A stretch of 64,000 nt of DNA from Pyrinomonadaceae bacterium (GTDB taxonomy: Bacteria; Acidobacteriota; Blastocatellia; Pyrinomonadales; Pyrinomonadaceae): positions 620,001-684,000 of the forward strand of contig DASUNM010000023.1 in the NCBI GenBank assembly GCA_036277115.1. The letters run 5' to 3'. This document shows positions 9,026-60,729 of this stretch, one piece after another. Under the pieces are notes generated by a model. That model did not search any database. It was not told the origin of the DNA and saw nothing but the letters and a program-made list of their open reading frames with translations. The position numbers and the translations under genes were made by a program. Position 1 is the stretch's first letter. Each line of letters opens with the position of its first letter.

Positions 9026-9931
9026 TCAAATCACCAGAGCGAGCCACTCATTGTCCTGCATGATTTCGTTTACCGTCGCGGCCTGCTCCAAAAGCCGCGC
9101 GTGCACCATCTCGAACTGGGTCTCAAGAATTCCAGACAGAACTAAGCGGCCGCAAGTGACTCCGAGCAATGCGGGCAGCAGATCGACGATCACCGGCGCC
9201 GTAAGATTCGCGCAAACCAAATCCGCTGAAGGTGTCTTTTCATCAATCGTTCCCACGCGGAAATCGATGTGCTCGCCCACCTGATTTAAATCGGCATTTT
9301 CTTTCGCGATCGCGATTGCATCGGCATCGGTGTCGCATGCCGTGATGGAAGGTAAGCCTTCCTGACGACCACCCCACGCGGGTTGCCCGCGTGGGGGCCC
9401 CGGTTGGTCGGGCTTCTGACATATCTTCGCGGCCGCGATGGCCAGGATTCCCGTACCCGTTCCGACGTCGAGGAAGCTTCCACTCGCGTAGTATTTTTCA
9501 ATCGCTTTCAAGCAGAGCCGCGTTGTTTCGTGCGTGCCGGTGCCGAAAGCCATGCCGGGATTGATACGGATAAGGAGGTGATCATCAGCAGCAGGCGGTT
9601 CCGACCACGGTGGCGCAATGATGAATCGACCTACCTCGACTGGCCGCCAATGCTTCTTCCATTCAGACAGCCAGTCTTGATCGGCGATCACGCGCGTTTG
9701 AAATTCAATTAATGCAGTTTTGTCGAAGCCGTAGATTTGTAAAGCTGCAAGCACGCTCTCCTGCGCGGTATTTCCTGACTCAGGACTATCAAAGTACGCG
9801 GACACCCGCAGGCGGCCCTCTGCCTCGTCGGTCGTCTCAGTTCCAATCGCGCCGGCTTCCATCAGCCCGTACTCGGCTGCTTCGCGAGCATCGCTGATGA
9901 CGATCGCATCCATGACCTGCCAGGTCTTCAT
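9026..9931 (-). CDS. prmA: Ribosomal protein L11 methyltransferase with in-frame palindrome insertion
   Basis: SAM-dependent methyltransferase of L11, 301 aa from ATG 9931. That ATG overlaps the era stop as ATGA, so translation is coupled. An N-terminal substrate-binding domain is followed by a linker (DWLSEWKKHWRPVEVG) and a Rossmann methyltransferase domain with INPGMAFGTGTHETTRLCL and FLDVGTGTGILAIAAAK (SAM loop), then VCANLTAPVI. Between AAAK and ITACDTDADAI (SAM-acidic loop) family members have only a few residues; here about 20 extra (CQKPDQPGPPRGQPAWGGRQ and neighbours, residues about 170-190) are encoded by a 45-bp palindrome at 9366-9410. The motifs are otherwise intact, so the enzyme is probably functional. 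Confidence 0.92.
   Translation of the reverse strand: MKTWQVMDAIVISDAREAAEYGLMEAGAIGTETTDEAEGRLRVSAYFDSPESGNTAQESVLAALQIYGFDKTALIEFQTRVIADQDWLSEWKKHWRPVEVGRFIIAPPWSEPPAADDHLLIRINPGMAFGTGTHETTRLCLKAIEKYYASGSFLDVGTGTGILAIAAAKICQKPDQPGPPRGQPAWGGRQEGLPSITACDTDADAIAIAKENADLNQVGEHIDFRVGTIDEKTPSADLVCANLTAPVIVDLLPALLGVTCGRLVLSGILETQFEMVHARLLEQAATVNEIMQDNEWLALVI
9366..9410. repeat. Palindromic element inserted within prmA coding sequence
   Basis: Outer 6-bp stem CGACCA/TGGTCG (9366-9371, 9405-9410) and inner 11-bp perfect stem (9372-9382, 9386-9396) with a TTG loop. The element is 45 bp, exactly 15 codons, so the frame is kept. A fragment with the same CCCACGCGGGCTGCCCG core is at 14534-14550. Confidence 0.85.
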
Positions 9932-14485: not shown

Positions 14486-14530
14486 AAATGGTCCTTTAGT
14501 TTGCAGGTTCCTTCTCGATCGTCGCATCCA

Positions 14531-14573
14531 CCACCCACGCGGGCTGCCCGGTCCGCTCCCGGAACTGACTCAC
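14531..14573. repeat. Repeat fragment sharing cores with two other families
   Basis: CCCACGCGGGCTGCCCG (14534-14550) matches the core of the palindrome in prmA, and the next bases GTCCGCTCCCGGAACTGACT resemble GTCGCTACCGCTCCCGGTACTGAC at 17197 and 33354. It looks like a degenerate or half copy. The remaining spacer up to the porin start shows nothing else clear. Confidence 0.5.
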
Positions 14574-22865: not shown

Positions 22866-22951
22866 GGGATTATCAGGTTTCAAGTTTCAGGTTTCAAGTT
22901 TCAAGCTCGCGGCTTCAACTTGAGACCTTAAACTTAGAACTTGAAACTAAC
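22866..22951. repeat. TTTCAAG-word tandem and inverted repeat
   Basis: Tandem copies of GTTTCAAG-like words (GGTTTCAAGTTTCAGG) run towards the centre, and the complementary word (CTTGAAAC) reads back on the other side, so the spacer can fold. Related words occur at 17157-17190 and 61556-61590. It fills the spacer between the YggX-like gene and the peroxiredoxin gene. Confidence 0.75.
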
Positions 22952-33214: not shown

Positions 33215-33301
33215 GGAAATTCCGAGCGGGCTTTAAGATCGCCACAACCTTTGAACGCGTTTACAAATACCGCGACGCGTAGCTGCTGTCAAAGTCGACA
33301 C

Positions 33302-33384
33302 GTGTCAGTACCCGGAGCGGTAGCGATGGGATCAGGACACAAGTTGCCTCTCGATCCGGTCGCTACCGCTCCCGGTACTGACAC
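33302..33384. repeat. Inverted repeat, GTGTCAGTACC...GCTCCCGG family
   Basis: Arms 33302-33332 and 33354-33384 are 31-bp inverted copies with three mismatches. Each has a GTGTCAGTACC head and an internal AGCGGTAGCG-like hairpin. A half copy is at 17197-17223. It lies between the penicillin acylase stop and the MBL-rhodanese start. Confidence 0.85.
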
Positions 33385-33405
33385 GCTGCTGGACGCTTCC
33401 CGACC

Positions 33406-60657: not shown

Positions 60658-60729
60658 GGCAGTAGCCCGACCGTAAGGGAGGGCGTGAATCGTTTAGGAA
60701 ACGCCCTCCCTTACGGTCGGGCTACTGCC
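60658..60729. repeat. Perfect 29-bp inverted repeat at the mazG 3' end
   Basis: Arms 60658-60686 and 60701-60729 are perfect complements, with the 14-base loop holding ATCGTTTAG. Each arm starts GGCAGTAGCCCGACCGTAAG. It codes the C-terminus GSSPTVREGVS of MazG. The core GGGCTACTGCC is shared with the 2054 and 8159 repeats. Confidence 0.9.

What the first reader, a model, noticed from the sequence alone, without database searches (positions are those of the whole stretch)
9366..9410. 45-bp palindrome inserted in frame in the methyltransferase domain of PrmA
Seen: a 45-bp element with an 11-bp perfect inner stem and a 6-bp outer stem lies in codons between the AAAK helix and the ITACDTDADAI strand, adding about 20 residues where PrmA proteins have a short loop. 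The length is a multiple of three and no stop is created. Known analogy: Rickettsia palindromic elements are tolerated inside proteins. This shows a repeat family able to enter essential-type coding sequence.
Basis: partly seen in the sequence, partly recalled or inferred. Interest (0 to 1): 0.62.

Follow-up and report, generated by a model that had tools for sequence, protein, structure and literature searches.

The report
Nested DNA hairpin inside PrmA gene
In a soil acidobacterium, a 39-base hairpin repeat has settled in the loop of an older palindromic repeat that had itself entered a protein gene, adding about 20 amino acids without breaking it, and relatives show this happened step by step in several core genes.

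Summary
The closest relative (G006) carries the plain REP at the same prmA codons; five other genus members have neither there. 48 cap copies were read in this genome, in loops of at least four palindrome classes; about 12 lie in frame inside genes (PrmA, transketolase, MutL, MutS2, Mfd, MetG and others). Orthologues of transketolase, MutL, MutS2, Mfd and PrmA show plain versus capped REPs at the same site, each differing by 13 codons. A second PrmA loop also hosts REPs in most of the genus. AlphaFold2 keeps the PrmA fold; the insert is a low-confidence loop. Intragenic REPs and Rickettsia palindromic elements are known; the in-frame, loop-nested second step seen by orthologue comparison is the new part. 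How the cap is added is inferred, not shown. The genome's nearest matches are Pyrinomonadaceae MAGs (Acidobacteriota).

The parts
9029..9931 (-). prmA, ribosomal protein L11 methyltransferase, 301 codons (MKTWQ...LALVI)
   Evidence: Pfam PF06325 1e-59; aligns with T. thermophilus PrmA 1ufk; AlphaFold2 model matches PrmA structures
9354..9420 (-). whole nested element: class C REP-type palindrome carrying the cap; encodes about 22 residues (CQKPDQPGPPRGQPAWGGRQEGLP)
   Evidence: relative G006 has the plain REP (CAGAAACCCGACCGTGAGGGAGGGC) at this site, five other genus members none
9405..9420 (-). 5' arm of the REP (GTCAGAAGCCCGACCA on the minus strand)
   Evidence: matches plain class C REPs such as window 60658-60729
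9354..9365 (-). 3' arm of the REP (TCAGGAAGGCTT on the minus strand)
   Evidence: pairs with the 5' arm in the fold
9366..9404 (-). 39-bp cap hairpin, ACCGGGGCCCCCACGCGGGCAACCCGCGTGGGGTGGTCG on the minus strand
   Evidence: repeat family across the genome; capped minus plain = 13 codons at five orthologous sites
9372..9396 (.). perfect 11-bp stem of the cap with 3-nt loop
   Evidence: I16; 0 expected by chance
9591..9605 (-). remnant of a second REP (GTCGGAACCGCCTGC) in the loop after APPW of the same gene
   Evidence: G006 has a complete plain class B REP here, G003 a capped class A REP pair

Best explanation
The insert is a two-layer palindromic repeat. Step 1 (shown by comparison): a class C REP-type palindrome entered the turn between helix alpha-A and strand beta-2 of the PrmA methyltransferase domain, in frame, in the lineage of G000 and G006. 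Step 2 (shown by comparison): in the G000 lineage a 39-bp hairpin cap was added inside the apical tetraloop of that REP, lengthening the loop by 13 codons. The cap is a repeat family living mainly in the loops of other palindromic repeats of this genus and a few related genera. It is tolerated in genes because the unit is 39 bp, is read without stops in five of six frames among the copies found in genes, and survives only in loops and interdomain linkers (inferred from where copies are found). Mechanism, inferred: REPs disperse through a TnpA-REP/RAYT-like Y1 transposase acting on single-stranded hairpins; caps reach existing REPs either by hairpin-loop-directed insertion or by conversion from an already capped REP. 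Selection then removes frame-breaking and core-damaging copies. The added peptide most likely has no function of its own.
For: Cap copies: (42 matches in G000, a few of them the reverse strand of the same hairpin); 48 distinct copies read. Nested history: plain REP in G006 prmA against capped in G000. The same 13-codon difference in transketolase (G002/G005 VSTGSGSDRV-type against G000 VSTGSG-PGSLRGQPARGGG-SDRV), MutL (G006 VSEPGAVATGS against G000), MutS2 (G001/G005 against G000) and Mfd (G004 plain against G006 capped). Loop position: plain classes A and B fold with apical GGTA, class C with GTAA, and the cap lies within that loop. Modular: caps sit in palindrome classes A, B, C and D and further contexts. 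Dependence: plain class A REP in 69 of 119 family genomes (14 genera), cap in 18 of 119 (4 genera), every cap genome also in the REP list. Tolerance: insert between residues 142 and 147 of 1ufk; model mean pLDDT 89.8 with residues 182-188 the only segment under 50; other hosts carry the cap mostly between Pfam domains. Nine Y1_Tnp genes in the genome.
Against: No transposition or target-site duplication was demonstrated. Y1_Tnp genes occur in 106 of 119 family genomes, so their presence does not track the cap, and enrichment of REPs beside them was not tested. Some capped orthologues differ from their plain relatives in stem type (MutL), so independent replacement at a shared hot loop is possible at some sites. 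Several compared genomes are fragmented MAGs. Expression and PrmA activity were not tested.
Confidence: 0.82

Rival explanations
1. The cap does not move on its own: capped REPs are an allelic form that overwrites plain REPs by gene conversion or template switching through shared stem sequence.
For: Many capped class A copies share a linked variant in the 3' arm (ATGCGACC or TTGCGACC instead of TAGCGACC), as expected if cap and arm travel together; orthologous plain-to-capped changes are clean.
Against: Caps also sit in class C, class D and other palindromes with little arm homology to class A, and an A-type cap sits in a class B stem (L008).
Confidence: 0.45
2. The two PrmA repeats in G000 and G006 are independent insertions at a hot loop, not one insertion followed by nesting.
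For: The same loop carries unrelated repeats in other lineages (L154, L145), and MutS2 and Mfd linkers carry different palindromes in different species.
Against: G000 and G006 share the same REP class, orientation, phase and codon position (CAGAARCCCGACC), and four other genes show the same plain/capped relation.
Confidence: 0.12
3. The inserted peptide or RNA hairpin was kept for a function, for example in folding, regulation or mRNA stability of prmA.
For: The hairpin is very stable as RNA, and REP hairpins are known to affect mRNA (own knowledge).
Against: The loop is short or filled by unrelated repeats in other species; the modelled insert is low-confidence; copies in genes read in five different frames give unrelated peptides.
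Confidence: 0.08
4. Assembly or binning artefact.
For: The relatives compared are MAGs.
Against: The window genome is 100% complete in 30 contigs; frames are intact across many genes and several species.
Confidence: 0.02

Closest known systems
REP / BIME / REPIN repeats and intragenic GTAG- and CGTC-tagged REPs (PMC3733652)
   Same: Short high-copy palindromes, often in opposite-facing pairs; a minority in frame inside genes, with many in DNA repair genes; loop variants are described there.
   Different: Seen here in Pyrinomonadaceae-like genomes; carries a separate 39-bp hairpin shared by unrelated REP classes, with orthologues showing plain and capped states at one site.
Rickettsia palindromic elements (RPEs; PMC10969869, PMC3733652)
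   Same: Palindromic repeats inserted in frame into unrelated conserved genes and tolerated.
   Different: RPEs are reported at about 150 bp in Rickettsia; no sequence relation was shown, and the present element is nested and mostly extragenic.
Insertion sequences that target REPs, such as ISPsy8, ISPpu9/10, ISRm22 (PMC1525189)
   Same: A second element inserts specifically into REP sequences.
   Different: The cap is 39 bp and codes for nothing; no autonomous partner was found.
REPs lying inside other palindromes (A. variabilis GTAG-15, H. neapolitanus CGTC-1; PMC3733652 section 7)
   Same: Palindrome within palindrome.
   Different: There the REP is the guest; here the REP is the host and the cap is the guest in its apical loop.

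Membership tests
REP (repetitive extragenic palindrome) | 20-40 bp imperfect palindrome in many copies per genome | tested here: met
   63 plain REP units of four classes in 464 kb; 69 of 119 family genomes with class A
REP (repetitive extragenic palindrome) | pairs in opposite orientation (BIME/REPIN) | tested here: met
   class A, B and C pairs, e.g. window 33301-33385 and 60658-60729
REP (repetitive extragenic palindrome) | GTAG or CGTC tetranucleotide at the foot of the hairpin | tested here: inconclusive
   plain class C begins GGCAGTAGCCC; classes A and B begin GTCAGTACC or GTCAGAACC
REP (repetitive extragenic palindrome) | mainly extragenic | tested here: met
   36 of 48 capped copies are outside long recognisable ORFs; 7 of 47 plain clusters have a spanning ORF of 200 aa or more
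REP (repetitive extragenic palindrome) | association with a RAYT (TnpA-REP) gene | tested here: inconclusive
   nine Y1_Tnp genes in G000; REPs within 1-2 kb of some, enrichment not tested; the gene is found in most family genomes
Rickettsia palindromic element | in-frame insertion in conserved genes | tested here: met
Rickettsia palindromic element | sequence membership in an RPE family | not tested
   no RPE sequence was compared; the resemblance is in behaviour only
MITE / IS-derived element | terminal inverted repeats with target-site duplication and an autonomous partner | tested here: inconclusive
   the cap is itself an inverted repeat, but no duplication could be defined beyond 2 ambiguous bases, and no larger relative was seen in the sampled sequence

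The most novel reading that the evidence does not exclude
The cap is an independent miniature element that recognises the apical tetraloop of REP hairpins in single-stranded DNA and inserts there as a fixed 39-bp (13-codon) unit, so that REPs inside genes act as landing pads that lengthen protein linkers in frame.
Probability: 0.35. Interest if true: 0.8.

Novelty: new variant of a known kind. Interest (0 to 1): 0.62.

Why it matters
Intragenic palindromic repeats are known, but stepwise evidence for how they build up is rarely available. Here one genus offers plain and capped states at the same codon in five conserved proteins, which makes two questions directly testable: how REP-like elements gain new loops, and whether selfish hairpins are a regular source of protein loop length. 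The same linkers in MutS2 and Mfd carry different palindromes in different species, so these sites can be used to follow repeat turnover under coding constraint.

Tried and rejected
Single 45-bp palindrome: rejected, since the element is two nested repeats. Ordinary PrmA loop: rejected, absent in nearly all of 48 homologues. Chance hairpin: rejected. Plasmid source: no match in plasmids. Y1 transposase as a marker of cap presence: it does not discriminate. Frame test of coding against non-coding caps: by a simple pattern, 5 of 5 measurable full-length coding copies have 39 bp and 5 of 16 non-coding copies have 38 bp; suggestive only, numbers small. The 464-kb sample was partly chosen around known caps, so its cap density is not a genome estimate. 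Papers on cyanobacterial nested repeats were sought without a direct hit.

Full report
What is there. The stems are real, the core is not a chance match, and the ORF is PrmA. The window lies at 620001-684000 of contig C23 of a 4.85-Mb genome, 100% complete in 30 contigs. The relatives that match it best are Pyrinomonadaceae and other Blastocatellia MAGs of the Acidobacteriota.

Nested anatomy. On the minus strand the element reads GTCAGAAGCCCGACCA / ACCGGGGCCCCCACGCGGGCAACCCGCGTGGGGTGGTCG / TCAGGAAGGCTT. The outer parts are the arms of a REP-type palindrome (class C; plain copies read GGCAGTAGCCCGACCGTAAGGGAGGGC, e.g. window 60658-60729). The middle 39 bp is the cap. The most direct reading is that the palindrome came first and the cap second.

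A family. The cap was found at dozens of places in this genome; 48 distinct copies were read. They sit in the loops of several classes of palindrome with different stems. Folding shows that plain classes A and B have a GGTA apical loop and class C a GTAA loop, with the cap falling inside it. In the family, plain class A REPs occur in 69 of 119 genomes from 14 genera; the cap in 18 genomes from 4 genera, all of which also have the REP. In a wider draw of 396 genomes of the phylum only 5 had the cap, one of them outside the family. Copy number differs strongly within the genus: 42 matches in G000 against 2 in G006.

In genes. About 12 of the 48 copies lie in frame in long recognisable ORFs. Those with Pfam support are PrmA, a LigB-AMMECR1 fusion, transketolase, MutS2, MutL, MetG, Mfd, a zinc dehydrogenase, a Pyr4-like membrane protein, and a NUDIX/metallo-beta-lactamase protein (near its N terminus, so less certain); two more (L008, L099) have no Pfam match above the cut-off. 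In most cases the cap lies between domains; in PrmA it lies in the alpha-A/beta-2 turn, between residues 142 and 147 of T. thermophilus PrmA. Plain REPs also enter genes in frame, for example a Der-like two-GTPase protein in L078 (named from its sequence by eye, not by a family search).

Orthologue tests. In transketolase, MutL, MutS2 and Mfd, other species of the genus carry a plain REP where G000 or G006 carries a capped one, and the difference is 13 codons each time. The MutS2 linker holds class A palindromes in four species, a class D palindrome in G004 and an unrelated inverted repeat in G002; the Mfd linker is similarly varied. PrmA has a second such loop, after APPW: plain class B in G006, degenerate REPs in G004 and G005, a capped class A pair in G003 and a remnant in G000 itself (9591-9605).

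Effect on the protein. AlphaFold2 gives mean pLDDT 89.8; the only segment under 50 is residues 182-188, inside the insert, flanked by an intact helix (162-172) and strand (196-200). The 17 best PDB matches of the model are all PrmA. The insert is therefore most likely a flexible surface loop. Activity was not tested.

How it works. Shown by comparison: repeat family, loop position, two-step history at five genes, in-frame tolerance. Inferred: REP movement by a Y1 (TnpA-REP-like) transposase, of which the genome has nine genes, and cap addition either by loop-directed insertion or by conversion from capped REPs. The presence of caps in unrelated stems favours some independent movement; shared 3'-arm variants among class A caps favour spread as a unit. 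I cannot decide between them.

Compared with what is known. Intragenic REPs, many in repair genes, are reported by PMC3733652, in-frame RPEs in Rickettsia by PMC10969869, and IS elements that target REPs by PMC1525189. The present case is a new variant: a fixed 39-bp hairpin that nests in REP loops, with plain and capped orthologues at the same codons. My literature search covered open-access papers only.

Noticed in passing
L158/L098 (G003), prmA loop after APPW: A capped class A REP pair of about 125 bp lies in frame in a second PrmA loop; G004, G005, G006 and G000 have plain, degenerate or remnant REPs there.
   Followed up: yes
L194-L198, MutS2 linker; L208-L213, Mfd linker: The same interdomain linker holds different palindromic repeat families in different species of the genus.
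   Followed up: partly
L154, L145, prmA alpha-A/beta-2 turn: Other lineages carry unrelated repeats in the same PrmA turn (runs such as GACTCAAGACTCAAG and AAGTCCTAAGTCTCAGG), resembling the GTTTCAAG repeats at window 22877-22948.
   Followed up: partly
window about 14500-14569, minus strand: A class A REP with what looks like an internally deleted cap (GAGCGGACCGGGCAGCCCGCGTGGGTGGTGGATGCGACG).
   Followed up: no
L078:13732-15264 minus: A plain class B REP in frame between the two GTPase domains of a Der-like protein.
   Followed up: partly
G210:C292:24546-24599: One genome of another family in the phylum has a strong cap match including the REP tail; transfer or contamination not distinguished.
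   Followed up: no
L110, L111: Caps between two short hairpins (GCGACTAGTCGC and GCGCTGACAAGTCAGCGC), a further host context.
   Followed up: no
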